A DNA stretch of 20,999 nt from a virus, in the IMG/VR virus record IMGVR_UViG_3300029267_002024, positions 1 to 20,999 of that record; one strand, 5' to 3'. Positions 669 to 16,537 of the stretch are shown piece after piece. The first letter of the stretch is position 1, and the number at the start of each line of letters is the position of its first letter. The translations under genes and the position numbers were made by a program. The notes under the pieces are model-generated. The model was not told the DNA's origin. It searched no databases and worked only from the letters and a program-made list of their open reading frames with translations.

Positions 669-1160
669 CCGTTCCTTTCCACTCCGTTCCATTCCCCTCC
701 CGTCCAATCCCGTCCCCTCCTTTCCATTCCAATCCAGTCTTCTCCGCTCCAGTACGCTCCTTTCCATTGAATGGATGATAAGGACAACCATTCCAGTCCA
801 ATCCTCTCCCCTCCTCTCCTGTCCTTTTCAGTCCAATCCAGTCCTTTCCGGTCCCATCCATTCCGTTGTGGATGATGAGGACGCCATTGCGTTCCGAATC
901 CTTTCCGCTCCAGTCCTCTCCCGTCCGGTCCTCTCCTGTCCAATCCTCTCCCATCCCCTCCATTCCGTTCCGATCCATTGAATGGATGATGAGGACAACC
1001 GTTCCAGTCCACTCCTCTTCAATCCCTTCCCGTCCAGTCCAATCCCCTCCTATCCCTTCCCGTCCATTGAATGGATGATGAGGACGCCATTGCGTTCCTT
1101 TCCGGTCCTTTCCTATCCTCTCCCGTCCCGTCCTTGCCTTTCCGCTCCTTTCCGGTCCTT
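669..1160 (-). repeat. Array 1 of degenerate pentamer GGANN (TCCNN on the plus strand)
   Basis: This fills nearly all of the 532-bp gap between the 81-aa gene and the DUF669-like gene. The plus strand reads TCC-NN repeatedly in a 5-bp register. The triplet is almost invariant, with only rare changes such as TCT, TAC or TTC, whereas NN takes all 16 dinucleotides within this array. Four separators break the run, near 763-790, 858-890, 974-1000 and 1060-1098. On the minus strand they read roughly GGTTGTCCTCATC then ATCCATTCAATGGA, the latter a small perfect palindrome around one C. The array ends in a leader, GGTTTTCACACTCC, followed by the AAGGAT ribosome site of the 81-aa gene. Open frames inside it on both strands are by-products of the lack of stop codons. 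Confidence 0.95.
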
Positions 1161-1170
1161 TGTTTACGTC

Positions 1171-1731
1171 TTACTCTCCTATCGGAGCAAGCAGGCGATA
1201 GTTGGTGTAGACCCTGCCGTCATTGGAGGGCGTCTTGACGGCCATGAACCTGATTTCATCGCCACTGGACCCCAGTTCCCTCGCGATTTCAGGAAGCTGT
1301 TCCAGTTCGATTTCCATCGGGTTGTACCCAAGGGTCGTGAGTGCCTGCCCAAGGATTCGGAAATCCACTTCGGTCGACAGCCGGAAGGGAATCTCAAAGT
1401 CCCTGCCCTTGAAGTCATCGGTTCCGTCCACGATGGTTTCCACGCCGTCCTCATCGACGGTCAACGCTGCGGAGGTCAGCTTGCAGGAAATGCAAAAGGC
1501 GTTCTGCCCGAACCTTTTCTTGATCCCGCCACTTGACAGACGACCAGTGTACTCGCCGGCAGGCAGATCATTGCCCATCCGGTTCATCTTCCACTGCTCG
1601 GCCAGTTGGGCATCCGGTACCCAGTCGTTGGAAGAACCCATCGAGCCTGTCTGGCTTCGATGCACTCCACCCTTCTTCGACTTGGTACTTTTCTTGGTGC
1701 TCTTCTTACTGGACTTCTTACGGGTTGCCAT
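1171..1731 (-). CDS. DUF669-like putative single-strand DNA-binding protein with lysine-rich N-terminal tail
   Basis: This is a 186-aa protein. Residues 1-25 are almost entirely K, S and T (MATRKKSSKKSTKKSTKSKK), a histone-H1-like tail. The body contains LPAGEYTGRL, then alternating beta-strand segments, and FRILGQALTTLGYNPMEIE. The LPAGEY motif and strand pattern remind me of the phage DUF669 family, whose members usually sit beside a RecA/Sak4-like ATPase and are thought to bind single-stranded DNA. Here such an ATPase lies immediately upstream in transcription order. Family assignment is from memory of the pattern and is moderate; the role is inference. The start has GGGAG nine bases upstream. 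The basic tail is unusual for the family and could add non-specific DNA affinity. Confidence 0.75.
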   Translation of the reverse strand: MATRKKSSKKSTKKSTKSKKGGVHRSQTGSMGSSNDWVPDAQLAEQWKMNRMGNDLPAGEYTGRLSSGGIKKRFGQNAFCISCKLTSAALTVDEDGVETIVDGTDDFKGRDFEIPFRLSTEVDFRILGQALTTLGYNPMEIELEQLPEIARELGSSGDEIRFMAVKTPSNDGRVYTNYRLLAPIGE

Positions 1732-1797
1732 GGCAACTTCTCCCTAGATTGAGAAACATTGTGTTACAACGACGTTACGCGAGTAGCTACTCTGCCT

Positions 1798-2715
1798 CTA
1801 CTCTTCCTCTTCGTCTTCCTCTTCGTCTTCCTCGGGTTCTTCCTCCTCTATAAAGCCGTACATCTTGTTGTTGTACCCGGCCAGGAGATCCTGATAAGCG
1901 TGCTTTGGTGTTTGGGATGACACCATGAACTCGATTAACGGATTTCCATCGGGGTCCAGAAAATGGTCAACGGGACCTGGCGATGCGTAGAGCAAGTTGG
2001 TTCCACGCACCGTGATTGACCTTTCCCCCTTCCGATAGTAATAGAAGAGGACAAGATCGCAGATGTCTTTCATCAGATCCCAGGCAGCCCCACACCCAGG
2101 TTCCCACTCGTCAAAGGCGTCCCCATCCCGTGGTGTGATGGTAACCTTTTTGTAGTGAGAAGTAAAGATCATTGGGCAGCCGGACGTGAGAAGGGCTTCG
2201 TAGGTTGTGGCAAGCTCTTCTTTGGCTTCCGCCCAAAAAGCCATTCGCTGGTTGCCAGGGAGATCGTTGACCTTTTTGATCCCCCACTGCCTACGCATCC
2301 ATTCCACACAACTCTTCCAGGCCCGGTCGATGGTGTCCGTTGCAATAGGCCGTGGGTTGTCCAGAAGAATCTCCACGTATTGCAACCACCGTTCCCAGTT
2401 CAATGGGGGTTCGCCAGGTCTTGGAGTTTGCTTTGCCCGGACGTTACGCCGTCTGGGTTCCCATTGGAAGATCGTGTAGCTCTGCCCATCCGCAGTACGC
2501 CATTGGGCACACATGCTTGTCTTCCCCACACCTTTCTTCCCGTAGAGGAAGACAGTGTAATCGTCAATGTTTGGCGGTGGGTCCGCCTCTTTCTGGGGAA
2601 GAACAATACGATCATCCGTCTTGGGTGCCGCTGCCTTCTTTCGAGTTCCCTTACGGGCAGGGGCCTTGCGTTTTGGTGCCGCCCTGCCAACCTTACGTGT
2701 CGGTGTTTTGGCCAT
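1798..2715 (-). CDS. RecA/Sak4-like phage ATPase with basic N-terminal and acidic C-terminal tails
   Basis: This 305-aa P-loop NTPase has Walker A GKKGVGKTS at 59-67, a Walker B-like segment PIATDTID at 123-130, and a hydrophobic strand PMIFTSHYKK at 181-190 where a sensor motif would lie. Length and layout match the Sak4-type RecA-like ATPases of phages, which promote annealing or recombination together with a single-strand-binding protein. The first 35 residues are rich in K, R, A and P. The last 17 residues are almost all E and D, similar in character to the acidic tails SSB proteins use for partner binding. The start is preceded by GAGGAGG five bases upstream. Downstream lies the DUF669-like gene, and upstream GGANN array 2. 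The ATPase call is firm; the Sak4 subtype is likely but unproven. Confidence 0.85.
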   Translation of the reverse strand: MAKTPTRKVGRAAPKRKAPARKGTRKKAAAPKTDDRIVLPQKEADPPPNIDDYTVFLYGKKGVGKTSMCAQWRTADGQSYTIFQWEPRRRNVRAKQTPRPGEPPLNWERWLQYVEILLDNPRPIATDTIDRAWKSCVEWMRRQWGIKKVNDLPGNQRMAFWAEAKEELATTYEALLTSGCPMIFTSHYKKVTITPRDGDAFDEWEPGCGAAWDLMKDICDLVLFYYYRKGERSITVRGTNLLYASPGPVDHFLDPDGNPLIEFMVSSQTPKHAYQDLLAGYNNKMYGFIEEEEPEEDEEEDEEEE

Positions 2716-2751
2716 AACAGCCTCCTCGGGTTAGTGATGAAAAACCATTGC

Positions 2752-2938
2752 TTTCCGATCCCGTCCGATCCGCTCCCCTCCTTTCCGCTCCCCTCCCCTC
2801 CGTTGTGTACAGAACCTTGAGAAAACCATTCCATTCCATTCCGGTTCGATCCACTCCGGTCCAATCCGGTCAGCTCCCGTCCCTTCCTTTCCAGTTCGGT
2901 TCGTTCCTATCCAATCCTCTCCCCTCCGCTCCTTTCCT
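2752..2938 (-). repeat. Array 2 of degenerate pentamer GGANN
   Basis: This array fills the gap between the 99-aa gene stop and the leader of the RecA-like ATPase. One separator at about 2803-2830 reads, on the minus strand, GGTTTTCTCAAGG followed by a variable stretch and TACACAACGGA. The 5-bp TCC-NN register holds on both sides. Downstream on the minus strand it passes into GCAATGGTTTTTCATCACTAACCC and then the ATPase's strong GAGGAGG ribosome site. Confidence 0.93.
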
Positions 2939-3238
2939 TTAGTGTTCACCCTTGCTGATGATCCCAGCAGCCTCTTGGAATGTTCTGATCCGGAAGATTG
3001 GCTTGCCGTCTTCCGTACAACCGAAGGCTGTTTCGAGTGCTATCGCAACCCGATTGACCAGTTGGGTGTATGCCCCAGGTAACAGATTCCGGAGGGCACC
3101 CGGAAGTGGATCGCTGACTTCGTACAACTTGGTCCGTTCGTTGATCTGAACTCGCTTTGCAGTCACATGGCGTTGCTCAAGCAACATGCGACCCATGATG
3201 GACTCCGGTGATAGACCACGCTTGATAACCTTGGGCAT
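2939..3238 (-). CDS. Unknown 99-aa protein
   Basis: I do not recognise this protein. It begins MPKVIKRGLSPESIMGRMLL and is mostly predicted helix, with a segment VNRVAIALETAFG near residues 61-73. The N-terminal half is basic. No Cys cluster, signal peptide or membrane span is visible. The start at 3236-3238 was chosen for its AGGGGA site six bases upstream. The frame runs open another 300 bases through GGANN array 3, but that part encodes only array-type low complexity. It lies between the nuclease and the ATPase genes and is the only gene here with an array on both sides. Confidence 0.75.
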   Translation of the reverse strand: MPKVIKRGLSPESIMGRMLLEQRHVTAKRVQINERTKLYEVSDPLPGALRNLLPGAYTQLVNRVAIALETAFGCTEDGKPIFRIRTFQEAAGIISKGEH

Positions 3239-3267
3239 GATAGTCCCCTTGTGTGAAAGTGTGAAAA

Positions 3268-3540
3268 CCATTCCGTTCCGATCCTTTCCCCTCCGCTCCA
3301 CGCCACTCCCTTCCAGTCCATTCCACTCCTCTCCATTGTGTATCGGACCTTGGAAAACCATTCCGTTCCGCTCCGCTCCGCTCCCTTCCCTTTCTGTCCT
3401 TTCCCATCCAGTCCCATCCACTCCCTTCCAATCCGCTCCAATCCATTGTGTGTGGAACCTTGGGAGAACCATTCCAGTCCTCTCCATTCCTCTCCTCTCC
3501 CATCCAGTCCAATCCGATCCAGTCCAATCCGTTCCACTCC
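3268..3540 (-). repeat. Array 3 of degenerate pentamer GGANN
   Basis: This holds most of the 304-bp gap between the PD-(D/E)XK nuclease stop and the 99-aa gene. It has three pentamer blocks divided by two separators, about 3335-3360 and 3445-3471. On the minus strand each separator reads GGTT(T/C)TCC, a short spacer with AAGGT, and ACACAATGGA. The array's own end reads GGTTTTCACAC and leads into CACAAGGGGA, the gene's ribosome site. The separators therefore look like degenerate copies of the gene leader. NN varies freely while GGA is kept. Confidence 0.95.
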
Positions 3541-3542
3541 TT

Positions 3543-4670
3543 TTAATCATCAAGCTCGGGATGTGGGGTTGATCTGCGATAGAGACCGTAGTAACTGCCG
3601 CGGGTAAGCAGATGAAAGAACTGTGACAGGGTTCCCATCTTGCGGGTCAGGGCCTCGGGATTCATGTAGTGCAATGATGATCCCCAGCGGAGATACGCAT
3701 CATCACTAGGGTCCCATTTTAATGAATCCTGGTCTATACCCAACTCGCATGTCCCTAATAAGGCTTCATGCCAGTTATAGAATTGTTCGAGGACACCCAT
3801 AAGTGTTTTGTAGTACCAGGTCATGACCGACTTCTCCGTCAACTTGGTCTCCCACCGCATGAAGTAGAAGGTTGGCCGTTTGGAAACATCGGCCGACACC
3901 CGGTCAAGGAACTCATTTCGTTCTTCTGTCTTGCCACGTCGAAGTTGAGGGCGTCGAATGACATCGCGAAGTGTCAAGGCCGGGACCTGCCCATGCTCAA
4001 GCAGAAAAGCATAGGCATAGAACATGGATTGGAAGTCGAGATGTAGCGATGCCTGTAGTGTGGCTTCGTCAACACGCCCTGCCGTTTTGATCTCCTGTTG
4101 GCAGATGGGTGGATTCTTTGCCCTGGTTTTCTTGAAGTAGAGCCCATCCCATTTACCACGAAGTGGGATTTCACATGCCTTGGAGACCATAACATTCAAT
4201 GGTGAGATTTCTTTAGTGGCAACCCTGAATGACTTTTCCCTCGCGATCCAGACACGACCGCTGTTGAACTTCTCCCAGTGCTTGTAGTAGCCGAGAAGGA
4301 CGACGTAAGCAAGATCGAGGGAATCCAAGTACCGTTGCCTTGTGGTCGCGTTGAATCCCCGGTGTTCCATGATCGACTCACCCATGGATTCGTAGACCGT
4401 TGACAAGGTATCCGGATTGTCCCCTGTCTTGTCGATCATATCATGGACTTGGGTTCCGAAGAGAAGTGGGCCGGAGATTTCTGTTGCCGTCCACCCTTCG
4501 ATGTAGGACAGATAGAAGTGCTCGGGGCAGTTCAGGTATTCCTTCAAGGCCGATTGAGTCATCCCATGCTTTGTAAGATCCCATTCGTATTTTCGCTTCG
4601 GGAGTCCCTTCTTTGCCACAGTGGTCTTCTTCTTTGCCACAGGGGCCTTCTTCTTTTTCTTGGTGGGCAT
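3543..4670 (-). CDS. PD-(D/E)XK (RecB/Cas4-like) nuclease with lysine-rich N-terminal tail
   Basis: This 375-aa protein carries a RecB-family nuclease domain. In order: SALKEYLNCPEHFYLSY (40-56), FGTQVHD with H76, WDG with D175, QEIKT with E193/K195, and DFQSMFYAY (212-220) with the Q and Y of motif III. These match the H-D-ExK-QxxxY pattern of PD-(D/E)XK exonucleases that process DNA ends. Only one Cys lies near the domain start, so I do not predict a Cas4-type iron-sulfur cluster. The first 27 residues are mostly K, A, T and V. The ATG at 4668-4670 has GGAG seven bases upstream; a TTG eight codons earlier lacks a good site. The uracil glycosylase gene ends one base upstream, so the two are probably co-translated. 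With the RecA-like ATPase it forms a recombination module. Confidence 0.85.
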   Translation of the reverse strand: MPTKKKKKAPVAKKKTTVAKKGLPKRKYEWDLTKHGMTQSALKEYLNCPEHFYLSYIEGWTATEISGPLLFGTQVHDMIDKTGDNPDTLSTVYESMGESIMEHRGFNATTRQRYLDSLDLAYVVLLGYYKHWEKFNSGRVWIAREKSFRVATKEISPLNVMVSKACEIPLRGKWDGLYFKKTRAKNPPICQQEIKTAGRVDEATLQASLHLDFQSMFYAYAFLLEHGQVPALTLRDVIRRPQLRRGKTEERNEFLDRVSADVSKRPTFYFMRWETKLTEKSVMTWYYKTLMGVLEQFYNWHEALLGTCELGIDQDSLKWDPSDDAYLRWGSSLHYMNPEALTRKMGTLSQFFHLLTRGSYYGLYRRSTPHPELDD

Positions 4671-4671
4671 G

Positions 4672-5274
4672 TCAATTCTCCAGTACGGCTTCAACTGCCG
4701 CGGTTAAGACCAGAACGAACCGCTCGAATTCGGCGGAGTTAATGCCACCCCTTCGACAGATAAAGGCAGGGTGGCGGGCGGAAAACATCAAGATACCTTG
4801 CTCCTCCCCATCATCATCCGTGATGGATTCCATGATAGAGGTTGAGGTCTGTTTGGCCGTATTGCCCATGAACACAATAGACCTTGGAAGGGCAATCGTC
4901 AGGAAGTCTGTGAGTCTATTACTACAGGCATTGACTTCCCTTTTGGTTGGCGTTCGCATCTCTGGAGGAAAACAAAGGCAGGCGTTTGCGATCGCGTAGG
5001 TGAAGTTGAATTCGTCTTCCACACGACGGATCGCCTCTTGGAGGACAACCCCAGCCCTGCCGACAAAAGGCCAGCCGCTTTTGTGTTCTTCAGGGCCAGG
5101 GGCTTCACCGATCAGGAGAACTTCGCAGGGCAGGGTCCCGCGTGAAAAGATTTTGATCTTCCTCGATAAGCCACACCCCTTGCATCGTGTCCATCGCCGG
5201 CAATGGGCGTCGAACATCATACGGGTATGGTCATCCTCGAAGATCAAGCTGGCAAGGGCATTGTCGATTCGCAC
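4672..5274 (-). CDS. Uracil-DNA glycosylase, family 4-like, with probable [4Fe-4S] cluster
   Basis: This 200-aa protein has the uracil-DNA glycosylase superfamily layout. The motif GEAPGPEE lies at 56-63, WPFVGRAG at 68-75 and ARHPAF at 166-171, which includes the late H-P motif. Cys31, Cys34, Cys101 and Cys117 occupy the positions of the four cluster ligands of family 4 enzymes: CxxC, the Cys before FPPEMRTP, and the Cys after KREVNA. The enzyme excises uracil from DNA. The start is GTG at 5272-5274, and the only strong purine-rich site is the G6 run of the repeat element at 5279-5308. In a phage replication operon it may repair deaminated cytosines or act as a replication factor. Superfamily assignment is firm; its biological role is inferred. 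Confidence 0.87.
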   Translation of the reverse strand: MRIDNALASLIFEDDHTRMMFDAHCRRWTRCKGCGLSRKIKIFSRGTLPCEVLLIGEAPGPEEHKSGWPFVGRAGVVLQEAIRRVEDEFNFTYAIANACLCFPPEMRTPTKREVNACSNRLTDFLTIALPRSIVFMGNTAKQTSTSIMESITDDDGEEQGILMFSARHPAFICRRGGINSAEFERFVLVLTAAVEAVLEN

Positions 5275-5278
5275 AGGT

Positions 5279-5308
5279 ATATACCCCCCTAATCACGGAT
5301 TTTATTAT
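5279..5308 (-). promoter_or_regulatory. G6 element copy A (candidate phage promoter and ribosome site)
   Basis: On the minus strand an AT-rich start (ATAATAAAA) is followed by TCCGTGATTA, six G and TATAT. All 30 bases are identical to the copy at 16164-16193, 11 kb away. The G run is 9 bases upstream of the GTG start of the uracil glycosylase. The layout (AT-rich block, about 9 specific bases, TTA, then G run) resembles promoters of T7-type RNA polymerases, but that is inference. Confidence 0.7.
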
Positions 5309-5320
5309 TGGGTGAAGGAG

Positions 5321-5572
5321 CCATTGCTTTCCGATCCCGTCCCTTCCTCTCCCGTCCTGTCCAATCCCCTCCGATCCCATCCCTTCCAATCCATTGTGAA
5401 TGGATGAGGACAGCCATTGCGTTCCGAATCCAATCCTCTCCCTTCCACTCCTTTCCTTTCCCATCCGCTCCCTTCCGCTCCCATCCGATCCGCTGTGAAT
5501 GGATGAGGACAACCGTTCCTATCCTATCCTATCCAATCCAATCCCGTCCTTTCCTCTCCCCTCCGTTGGACC
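5321..5572 (-). repeat. Array 4 of degenerate pentamer GGANN
   Basis: This occupies most of the 301-bp gap between the 185-aa gene stop and the uracil glycosylase. It has three blocks with separators near 5391-5425 and 5490-5518, which read on the minus strand GGTTGTCCTCATCCATTCAC or close to it. This is the same separator family as array 1. The block at 5519-5535 has three successive TCCTA units. Between the array and the glycosylase start lies G6 element copy A. Confidence 0.94.
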
Positions 5573-5575
5573 CAC

Positions 5576-6133
5576 CTACTTCCTCGGCTTGTCCACGATG
5601 CCGCGTTTCTTGAGGTAGACATCCGACGACCGGACTTGCTTTGGCTTCCAGCCTTGGCTCAGGGCTTCGCGGGATTCACTGATGCCCTTTTCGAGTCCTG
5701 CAACAATCCAGGTATCGGCAACTAACCTGGCGTAGTGTTGCTTTCGCTCCCACGAATTGAGCTTGGTCTGGTCAACGGACATCAGGGCCTTCAAGCCCTT
5801 CCTCACTTTGGTAATGCCTGACTCGATCAGCCGCTTGTCGGCATAGACCGACTGTTGGGCATGGGTTGGAATGATGAATCGTGTCTCCTGCTTAAAGACA
5901 ACGATCCGATCCATCTTCTTTCGGAACGCCGAGATGACGAGGTTTCCAAAGGCCAGTTCCCATTGCCAGAAAACGGGATCATCTGCTGGCATCCCAAGGA
6001 TCTCCTCCATTTCCGCAACACTGAAAGACATGCCGCGGTGCACGGAGTTCCAGTCAAACTTGTAGCTTGCTGGGTTTGACTTGGATCGCTCATCGGGTTT
6101 GGGGTCCTGTGCAGCTTCAGTTACAGTTGCCAT
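5576..6133 (-). CDS. Unknown 185-aa phage protein
   Basis: I do not recognise this protein. It starts MATVTEAAQDPKPDERSKS, a disordered charged segment. A globular part follows from about residue 25, with a helical segment FSVAEMEEILGMP, a hydrophobic core FGNLVISAFRKKMDRIVVFK, and a long helix-rich second half ending in a basic tail (KKRGIVDKPRK). No catalytic motif is evident. GGAG lies six bases before the ATG at 6131-6133; a TTG four codons earlier is less likely. Its leader is a near copy of the leader of the upstream 205-aa gene, so the two may be expressed alike. GGANN array 4 follows its stop codon. Confidence 0.75.
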   Translation of the reverse strand: MATVTEAAQDPKPDERSKSNPASYKFDWNSVHRGMSFSVAEMEEILGMPADDPVFWQWELAFGNLVISAFRKKMDRIVVFKQETRFIIPTHAQQSVYADKRLIESGITKVRKGLKALMSVDQTKLNSWERKQHYARLVADTWIVAGLEKGISESREALSQGWKPKQVRSSDVYLKKRGIVDKPRK

Positions 6134-6148
6134 GATGGTCTCCAATGT

Positions 6149-6176
6149 GTAGGTGGTAAAAAGAGTACAACCGTTC
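6149..6176 (-). repeat. Duplicated gene leader, copy 1 (copy 2 at 6830-6860)
   Basis: The plus strand reads GTAGGTGG, a T-A5-rich stretch, and TACAACCGTTCC. The sequence at 6830-6860 matches it over about 30 bases with a few changes. Each copy sits just upstream of a ribosome site (genes ending at 6133 and 6809). The GGAACGGTTGT end is also the start of the separators in arrays 1 and 4, tying leaders and arrays to one ancestral sequence. Confidence 0.75.
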
Positions 6177-6191
6177 CGTTGGGGGCTGGCG

Positions 6192-6809
6192 TTAGACGCC
6201 GGTGCCGAGAGGTTGCTCCTCGAACTTGGTAACCTTGAACTTTCCGTACTGCGGCCGGAAGTCGGACAGACCTACCAGCACGGAGGCAGAACGCAACCAG
6301 GACATGATCCGGTCAGGATCAACTTGGTCCGGCATGAACTGGACGGTGAACTCAACCGCCCAATTCTTGAAGATCGGACGACAGCGGAGGGTCGGTGCCC
6401 CGGACACGCGAACCATTCGCACGTCCCGGCAACCCTCGGCCTTGAACATCTTTTGCTTTTCCTTGGGACCGTCGTACTCCAGTGGGCCAGTCTGCCCAAT
6501 CTGTACTGCCGACTTGGCGAAGGGTCCATCCTTGTGCTTCTTCGCTCCTGCGATCAACATTGCATGGACGTTTTCCGTCGGCCAGTAGGGTTGCCCCTGT
6601 TCGTTGAGGTATAGGGAACCCTCAAAGTCCGCAAGAAACATCTCCTCTTGAGCTTCCTCGCTCAGGGCCTTCCCACGCTTTCGCGAAGCGTTGATCTTGG
6701 AGATCCACTTCGCATACTTGTTTGTCGGATCGGCCTTCTGCCCATTATTCATCAACGCCGGGCCGATTCCCTCGATACGAACCTTCAGCTCTGAATACAG
6801 TTCAGACAT
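6192..6809 (-). CDS. Conserved phage protein of unknown function, 205 aa
   Basis: The protein begins MSELYSELKVRIEGIGPALM, followed by ADPTNKYAKWISKI. It continues with a segment F-x-GSLYLNEQGQPYWPTENV and AMLIAGAKKHKDG, and ends with VGLSDFRPQYGKFKVTKFEE. I recall this order (small-molecule-like 'GPALM-NG' start, 'YWP-EN' centre, 'GL-D-RP-YG-F' end) from a widespread but uncharacterised phage protein family in early regions. The glycine-containing loop near the end is the most conserved part. The start at 6807-6809 has AGGAG seven bases upstream. The open frame continues through array 5 to 7250, but this extension has no ribosome site. Position in the replication block is the only hint of function. 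Confidence 0.78.
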   Translation of the reverse strand: MSELYSELKVRIEGIGPALMNNGQKADPTNKYAKWISKINASRKRGKALSEEAQEEMFLADFEGSLYLNEQGQPYWPTENVHAMLIAGAKKHKDGPFAKSAVQIGQTGPLEYDGPKEKQKMFKAEGCRDVRMVRVSGAPTLRCRPIFKNWAVEFTVQFMPDQVDPDRIMSWLRSASVLVGLSDFRPQYGKFKVTKFEEQPLGTGV

Positions 6810-6829
6810 CGTAACGCTCCTCTCGAAAA

Positions 6830-6860
6830 GTAGGTGGGTAAAAGTAAATACAACCGTTCC
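6830..6860 (-). repeat. Duplicated gene leader, copy 2 (copy 1 at 6149-6176)
   Basis: This is the partner of the leader at 6149-6176. It lies between array 5 and the AGGAG site of the 205-aa gene. The plus strand reads GTAGGTGGGTAAAAG, then TACAACCGTTCC, where it merges into the first pentamers of the array. Confidence 0.75.
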
Positions 6861-7036
6861 GCTCCTCTTCGCTCCAGTCCTCTCCCTTCCTCTCCAATCC
6901 TCTCCGCTCCGTTCCAGTCCCCTCCCATCCACTCCTTTGTGTATAGGACCTTGGAGAACCGTTGCGTTTCGTTCCACTCCCTTCCCATCCAATCCGCTCC
7001 GATCCCGTCCGGTCCTTTCCTGTCCCTTCCTTTGTG
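6855..7036 (-). repeat. Array 5 of degenerate pentamer GGANN
   Basis: This lies in the 313-bp gap between the DUF932-like gene stop and the 205-aa gene. One separator at 6935-6960 reads, on the minus strand, GGTTCTCCAAGGTCC then TATACACAAAGGA. The upstream edge near 7027-7050 holds a decayed separator (TTTGTGTTTTATCGGGGCACC on the plus strand, split by changes). The rest of the gap, 7050-7122, is GC-rich unique sequence with no visible gene. No further GGANN arrays occur to the right of this point. Confidence 0.93.
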
Positions 7037-9307: not shown

Positions 9308-9332
9308 AATAAAAACCGTGATTAGGGGGGTA
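9308..9332 (+). promoter_or_regulatory. G6 element copy B, opposite strand to its neighbours
   Basis: The plus strand carries AATAAAAACCGTGATTA, six G and TA, the 25-bp core of the element. It lies between two leftward genes but points right, toward the divergent region and the rightward block at 10812. A short frame (ATG then five codons and stop) follows directly. As a promoter it would yield RNA antisense to the genes at 9343-9908. Confidence 0.65.
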
Positions 9333-16163: not shown

Positions 16164-16193
16164 ATAATAAAATCCGTGATTAGGGGGGTATAT
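16164..16193 (+). promoter_or_regulatory. G6 element copy C, downstream arm of the 62-aa gene
   Basis: The plus strand is identical over 30 bases to copy A at 5279-5308. It points rightward, opposite to the surrounding leftward genes. With copy D (16508-16537) it forms an inverted pair around the 62-aa gene. The G run is followed by TATATGTAG, an ATG immediately closed by a stop, so no gene starts here. Confidence 0.75.
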
Positions 16194-16507: not shown

Positions 16508-16537
16508 ATATACCCCCCTAATCGCGGTTTTTATTAT
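16508..16537 (-). promoter_or_regulatory. G6 element copy D, upstream of the 62-aa gene
   Basis: The minus strand reads ATAATAAAAACCGCGATTA, six G and TATAT. It differs from copies A and C at two of 30 positions. The ATG of the 62-aa gene begins within the TATATATG tail. If this is a promoter with initiation at the G run, the leader would be about 11 bases. Confidence 0.72.

What the first reader, a model, noticed from the sequence alone, without database searches (positions are those of the whole stretch)
669..7036. Five intergenic arrays of a 5-bp repeat with a fixed triplet and a random doublet (GGANN)
Arrays at 669-1160, 2752-2938, 3268-3540, 5321-5572 and 6855-7036 keep GGA (minus strand) every 5 bp for tens of units while NN takes all 16 values. 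Ordinary tandem repeats decay at every position; here one triplet is held and its register kept while two bases drift freely, so selection acts on GGA spacing. All five lie directly upstream of leftward replication/recombination genes and none elsewhere. GGA is the core of Shine-Dalgarno sites and of CsrA/RsmA binding sites, so one idea is a leader RNA that loads ribosomes or titrates CsrA. Another is a DNA-binding filament that contacts GGA every half helical turn.
Basis: partly seen in the sequence, partly recalled or inferred. Interest (0 to 1): 0.88.

Follow-up and report, generated by a model that had tools for sequence, protein, structure and literature searches.

The report
GGA-type VIPR guide-RNA arrays in phage
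The odd GGANN repeats are very probably arrays of guide RNAs of VIPR, a CRISPR-related phage system described in a 2026 preprint, in which each repeat carries two guide letters; this phage uses GGA where the published systems use GGC or GGT.

Summary
Window 673-7030 has 15 blocks of 10-22 GGANN units (sense = minus strand) in five intergenic arrays. The triplet is exact in 204 of 216 units; NN is near maximal entropy. Related arrays occur in at least 25 distinct uncultivated virus contigs, with GGA on the coding strand. Their shared neighbour is a 205-aa protein (window 6192-6809). Its AlphaFold model matches CRISPR RAMP/Cas7 subunits, and it is homologous to the Vipr protein of phage SUSP1. 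This makes the locus a VIPR system (preprint PMC13142463): arrays are vrRNAs, the fixed triplet is held by Vipr, and NN pairs recognise DNA with one skipped base. Two sequence tests support this for the GGA class. NN pairs have the composition of codon positions 1-2, coherent in strand within each guide, for the pooled set and for this window alone; and in homologous blocks of a related phage pair NN changes about ten times faster than GGA. Differences from the main-text VIPR description: GGA instead of GGY, a GGY unit closing most blocks, and 15 guides spread through a replication operon. No natural target was found.

The parts
673..1158 (-). Array 1: five vrRNA-like blocks (1158-1096, 1065-1003, 976-899, 864-792, 765-673), 13/13/16/15/19 GGANN units, with linkers
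   Evidence: same array in L131
2754..2937 (-). Array 2: two blocks (2937-2830, 2801-2754), 22 and 10 units
3272..3540 (-). Array 3: three blocks (3540-3473, 3444-3362, 3334-3272), 14, 17, 13 units
5330..5564 (-). Array 4: three blocks (5564-5517, 5491-5429, 5392-5330), 10, 13, 13 units
6858..7030 (-). Array 5: two blocks (7030-6973, 6935-6858), 12 and 16 units, just upstream of the vipr-like gene
6192..6809 (-). Vipr-like RAMP protein, 205 aa (phrog_4652, unknown function, no Pfam)
   Evidence: shared neighbour of arrays; AF2 pLDDT 93.5, pTM 0.87; Csm3/Cas7 fold, VIA Z 11.4 to 8do6_E; homologues in Felixounavirus and SUSP1
5576..6130 (-). Candidate vap (accessory) gene, 184 aa, directly downstream of vipr; homologues beside arrays in L092, L104, L128, L138, L040
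   Evidence: function unresolved, poor model (pLDDT 69.5)
6936..6972 (-). Example linker/tail (ACGAAACGCAACGGTTCTCCAAGGTCCTATACACAAA): element AYGGYTnT after the last GGA unit; all window blocks reach a GGY triplet by inspection
1798..2715 (-). Sak4-like AAA ATPase lying between arrays 1 and 2 (context, not a VIPR part)
3543..4670 (-). PD-(D/E)XK exonuclease between arrays 3 and 4 (context)
4672..5274 (-). Uracil-DNA glycosylase superfamily protein downstream of array 4 (context)

Best explanation
The window carries a phage VIPR system of a GGA class. The five arrays are transcribed with the operon or from their own promoters and give about fifteen ~100-nt vrRNAs, each of 10-22 GGANN units plus a 3' tail. 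Vipr (6192-6809), a small Cas7-like RAMP, coats the RNA, presumably one subunit per 5-nt unit, gripping GGA and leaving NN exposed. The exposed doublets read double-stranded DNA as NN-x-NN-x with one skipped base, so coding targets are read at codon positions 1 and 2 and the wobble base is ignored. The likely result is silencing of genes of competing phages or satellites. Shown here: arrays, strand rule, Vipr homology and fold, association with Vipr, triplet constraint, codon-phase signature. Taken from the published relative: RNA processing, ribonucleoprotein formation, skip rule, silencing. Inferred: that the GGA class does the same, and that competing phages are its targets.
For: Arrays and statistics. 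Sense-strand bias 43 of 46. One protein family recurs beside arrays: profile hits in 33 of 37 array loci and in two more of the records. Cas7/Csm3 fold at high model confidence. Homology to Felixounavirus proteins (28%, about 1e-16) and, through L092, to SUSP1 Vipr (36%, 5e-33). Isolates found from the protein, not from the repeat, also carry pentamer arrays: GGT in SUSP1 and wV8, GGC in LittleE, Trine, Pipp, ODay and LESphi2, GCA in phiHSIC and Vibrio 1.266.O. Published VIPR biology: PMC13142463. NN composition: codon 1-2 model +62.9 bits for 184 guides versus -63.7 +/- 19.0 for scrambled doublets (0 of 1000); codon 2-3 -41.8; codon 3-1 -228.6; strand coherence p=0.001; window alone +12.2 versus -4.8 +/- 4.4 (0 of 1000), coherence p=0.025. 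Contiguous reading is no better than permuted units. Block plus linker 76-119 nt, matching the ~100-nt SUSP1 vrRNAs.
Against: The triplet is GGA, not the published GGY. Exact-pattern searches with four of the fifteen window guides in IMG/VR found no convincing target; the best (L169, 22 of 24) is expected about 0.05 times by chance and is not in wobble phase. The real doublets also beat scrambled ones under the other two codon phases, though both stay negative. One array-bearing record, L076 (37 kb), has no Vipr match. Tail structure was not demonstrated; no Rfam match. Accessory gene not assigned.
Confidence: 0.88

Rival explanations
1. Autoregulatory or sponge leader: a ring or filament RNA-binding protein (as TRAP binds NAG triplets with 2-nt spacers, or CsrA binds ANGGA) binds GGA repeats in the mRNA to control neighbouring genes; NN is only spacer.
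For: 5-nt period with fixed triplet and free doublet resembles TRAP targets (own knowledge); arrays sit between co-directional genes with GGA on the sense strand.
Against: NN carries codon position 1-2 composition coherent by guide; ANGGA not enriched; the associated protein has a Cas7/RAMP fold, not a TRAP or CsrA one.
Confidence: 0.06
2. VIPR homologue that targets RNA (like type III Csm3/Cmr4 complexes) instead of DNA.
For: The closest solved folds are Csm3 and other RNA-targeting RAMPs; codon-phase NN fits mRNA as well as coding DNA.
Against: The published relative binds dsDNA (PMC13142463). Pure mRNA targeting predicts one strand only; a two-strand mixture (+56 bits) fits far better than either strand alone (-77 and -95 bits).
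Confidence: 0.05
3. Selfish or structural pentamer repeat (microsatellite expansion, or a DNA filament site every half turn) with no guide function.
For: Tandem 5-bp register is half a helical turn.
Against: Doublets do not resemble neighbouring units; strong strand bias; triplet type differs between phages while the period and the Vipr neighbour stay.
Confidence: 0.01

Closest known systems
VIPR of Escherichia phage SUSP1 (type II), PMC13142463
   Same: Homologous Vipr RAMP; pentamer arrays with hypervariable NN in the intergenic DNA around vipr; ~100-nt units; conserved sequence after the repeat tract
   Different: Fixed triplet GGA, not GGT/GGC; 15 guides in five arrays spread over 6.4 kb of replication genes, versus 4 around a two-gene locus; different candidate accessory gene; different tail
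VIPR-like loci with GGC, GGT or GCA arrays (LittleE, Trine, Pipp, ODay, LESphi2, wV8, phiHSIC, Vibrio 1.266.O; Azospirillum and Bradyrhizobium plasmids)
   Same: Vipr gene with pentamer arrays on the same strand within about 1 kb
   Different: Other fixed triplets; none of these uses GGA
Class 1 CRISPR RAMPs (Csm3/Cas7)
   Same: Fold; expected oligomer on guide RNA
   Different: No CRISPR repeat-spacer array at the locus; guide period 5 nt, not 6; the protein is small and stands alone

Membership tests
VIPR | Small single RAMP (Cas7-like) protein | tested here: met
   205 aa; AF2 pLDDT 93.5; Csm3 matches Z up to 11.4; glycine-rich C-terminal loop conserved
VIPR | Sequence homology to published Vipr (SUSP1) | tested here: met
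   window protein to Felixounavirus homologues, about 28%, about 1e-16; L092 homologue to SUSP1 36%, 5e-33; window, L092 and SUSP1 group in one subtree, support 0.88
VIPR | Tandem 5-nt repeats of an invariant triplet and hypervariable NN, 9-16 units, near vipr | tested here: met
   15 blocks of 10-22 units; two arrays flank vipr and its neighbour
VIPR | Triplet is GGY (main text; 'or a related consensus', fig. S17 not readable here) | tested here: not met
   GGA in 204 of 216 units; GGY only as the closing unit. The authors' own definition allows related consensuses, so membership is not excluded
VIPR | Conserved structured 3' tail | tested here: inconclusive
   Conserved AYGGYTnT element and similar linkers; no structure shown; no Rfam match
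VIPR | 1-nt-skip noncontiguous code | tested here: met
   Indirect test only: NN = codon positions 1-2, strand-coherent
VIPR | Natural targets in competing phages | tested here: inconclusive
   Four of 15 guides scanned in IMG/VR, no convincing hit
VIPR | Accessory vap gene | tested here: inconclusive
   Candidate 5576-6130, recurrent in six loci, function unresolved
VIPR | vrRNA expression and Vipr ribonucleoprotein that binds dsDNA | not testable with these tools
   needs experiments
CRISPR-Cas class 1 | Repeat-spacer array | tested here: not met
   Only 5-nt units with short linkers
TRAP target | NAG triplets spaced by 2-3 nt | tested here: not met
   triplet is GGA followed by free bases
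CsrA/RsmA target | ANGGA consensus | tested here: not met
   A two bases before GGA in 49 of 201, background

The most novel reading that the evidence does not exclude
A separate GGA class of VIPR, widespread in uncultivated phages, whose Vipr grips GGA inside the guide and uses a single GGY unit as the mark that ends the guide; this phage deploys at least fifteen such guides from arrays scattered through its replication operon.
Probability: 0.45. Interest if true: 0.66.

Novelty: new variant of a known kind. Interest (0 to 1): 0.58.

Why it matters
VIPR is a newly described RNA-guided system that reads DNA with a gapped code and may predate CRISPR. The GGA class shows that the fixed triplet is not universal, so triplet recognition must be encoded in Vipr and can be compared across relatives. 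The NN statistics give support for wobble skipping without any known target, a test that can be applied to any VIPR locus. The closing GGY unit is a testable idea for how guide ends are defined.

Tried and rejected
TRAP-ring idea (block length near 11-13) was set aside once the shared neighbour proved RAMP-like. One search was a mistyped pattern, not a decoded guide, and is ignored. Searching for targets of 185 guides within 1.27 Mb of fetched loci gave only chance-level hits for every skip rule. Exact-pattern scans of four window guides gave hits whose flanking units do not match. A search of 369 gammaproteobacterial genomes for Vipr found none. The search for related loci with the single window protein found none. 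The accessory candidate has no significant fold match. Rfam and ARAGORN found nothing in the window. Whether the GGA class is already in the preprint's figures S16-S19 could not be checked, as supplements were not available.

Full report
What is there. On the minus strand between 7030 and 673 the window has 15 blocks of the pentamer GGANN, 216 units in all, 204 with an exact triplet. The two free positions have 1.996 and 1.984 bits of entropy and neighbouring units do not resemble each other. Two hundred dinucleotide shuffles of the region never reached the run threshold. The blocks form five arrays, all between leftward genes. Linkers of 25-37 nt join blocks within an array; block plus linker measures 76-119 nt. 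A second contig, L131, repeats the first 2.65 kb at 99.9% identity, array included.

How common it is. A stricter pattern matched only 5 of 84,980 species genomes. GGA lies on the coding strand in 43 of the 46 arrays whose two flanking genes agree in direction (simple ORF calls). In homologous blocks of L021 and L090, 5 of 342 triplet bases differ against 36 of 228 NN bases.

The partner. Clustering proteins of the array loci gave one family present in most of them and adjacent to the arrays; a profile finds it in 33 of 37 loci, and two more have it elsewhere in their record or genome. In the window it is 6192-6809, 205 aa, PHROG 4652, with no Pfam match. Its AlphaFold2 model (pLDDT 93.5, pTM 0.87) matches Csm3 and other Cas7-type RAMPs (best VIA Z 11.4). 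tblastn finds relatives in Felixounavirus, Mycobacterium, Gordonia and Vibrio/Listonella phages and, through L092, in SUSP1.

Identification. The preprint PMC13142463 describes VIPR: Vipr, a phage RAMP, with vrRNAs of 9-16 YNNGG repeats that read dsDNA as NN-x-NN-x. SUSP1 is its main example. The same kind of pentamer array stands beside Vipr genes that I reached from the protein side, without using the repeat: GGT in SUSP1 and wV8, GGC in LittleE, Trine, Pipp, ODay, LESphi2 and in Bradyrhizobium and Azospirillum plasmids, GCA in phiHSIC and Vibrio 1.266.O. MakoManhole and Medea1 have weaker GGY arrays; two Azospirillum loci showed none at the threshold. A shuffled control of 166 kb gave no arrays. 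None of these isolates uses GGA; the GGA class is seen here only in uncultivated sequences, which were however found with a GGA pattern, so its true frequency is not known. In a tree, GGA-bearing Viprs occur on several deep branches and the SUSP1-type GGY group lies among them (same sampling bias).

Testing the code without targets. If each doublet pairs with DNA and one base is skipped, coding targets are read in a fixed codon phase. For 184 guides (2,278 doublets) a model of codon positions 1-2, with each guide either sense or antisense, gains 62.9 bits over independent bases; scrambled doublets give -63.7 +/- 19.0 (0 of 1000 reach it); positions 2-3 give -41.8 and 3-1 -228.6. Shuffling doublets among the guides of one phage lowers the gain to 40.1 +/- 6.6 (p=0.001), so guides are coherent in strand. 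The window alone gives +12.2 against -4.8 +/- 4.4 (0 of 1000), coherence p=0.025. A contiguous codon reading is no better than permuted units. The codon tables come from the array-bearing phages themselves, a stand-in for the unknown targets.

Differences from the published type. Interior triplets are GGA (1,896 of 2,084), yet the next in-phase triplet after a block is GGC or GGT in 137 of 191 blocks, while GGC makes up 20 of 2,084 interior units. In the window the simple in-phase count is 9 of 14 listed; by inspection the others reach GGY after a GCA unit or a one-base slip. The arrays are spread among Sak4-like, exonuclease, glycosylase and other genes. The gene after vipr (5576-6130) recurs in six loci and is a candidate accessory gene, but its model is poor.

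What failed. Four decoded window guides scanned in IMG/VR gave no convincing target. The closest, L169 at 22 of 24, is expected about 0.05 times by chance and is out of wobble phase. One search was a mistyped pattern.

Verdict. They are a variant (GGA) of a kind described in 2026; whether the preprint's supplement already lists this variant is not known.

Noticed in passing
window 5285-5298 (+), 9316-9329 (-), 16174-16187 (-), 16514-16527 (+): A repeated intergenic element, TAC-CCCCCTAATCACGG-NTTTTATT, four copies on both strands (0.2 expected); perhaps a phage promoter or regulator site.
   Followed up: partly
L142:7200-7395, L140:2980-3145, L080:6830-6890, L155:3783-3851, L025:6887-6956: In several relatives the sequence after a pentamer block looks like a truncated tRNA (acceptor stem plus T-arm, GGTTCGANTCC); ARAGORN calls odd tRNAs at L155 and L025. 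It may be a processing signal for vrRNA ends.
   Followed up: partly
L143 and L157: Vibrio and Listonella phages have GCANN arrays beside their Vipr gene, so even the two Gs are not universal.
   Followed up: partly
L142, L143, L156, L198: The Vipr gene, often with a second small gene, sits as a lone cassette among tail or head genes of unrelated phages; in wV8 (L141) it is flanked by annotated direct repeats DR_4.
   Followed up: no
L194, L200: On Bradyrhizobium plasmids Vipr and a GGC array are followed by a metallophosphoesterase and an AAA ATPase, perhaps a nuclease-type VIPR.
   Followed up: no
L017:5304-5762 and eleven other loci: A second recurrent neighbour family with the motif SPLHxxFEWDxxxAA lies beside vipr and arrays in 12 loci; possible accessory gene.
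   Followed up: no
L024:1182-1399 and five near-identical contigs: A phage with one uninterrupted array of 44 GGANN units between vipr and the next gene; may be the staggered overlapping type.
   Followed up: no
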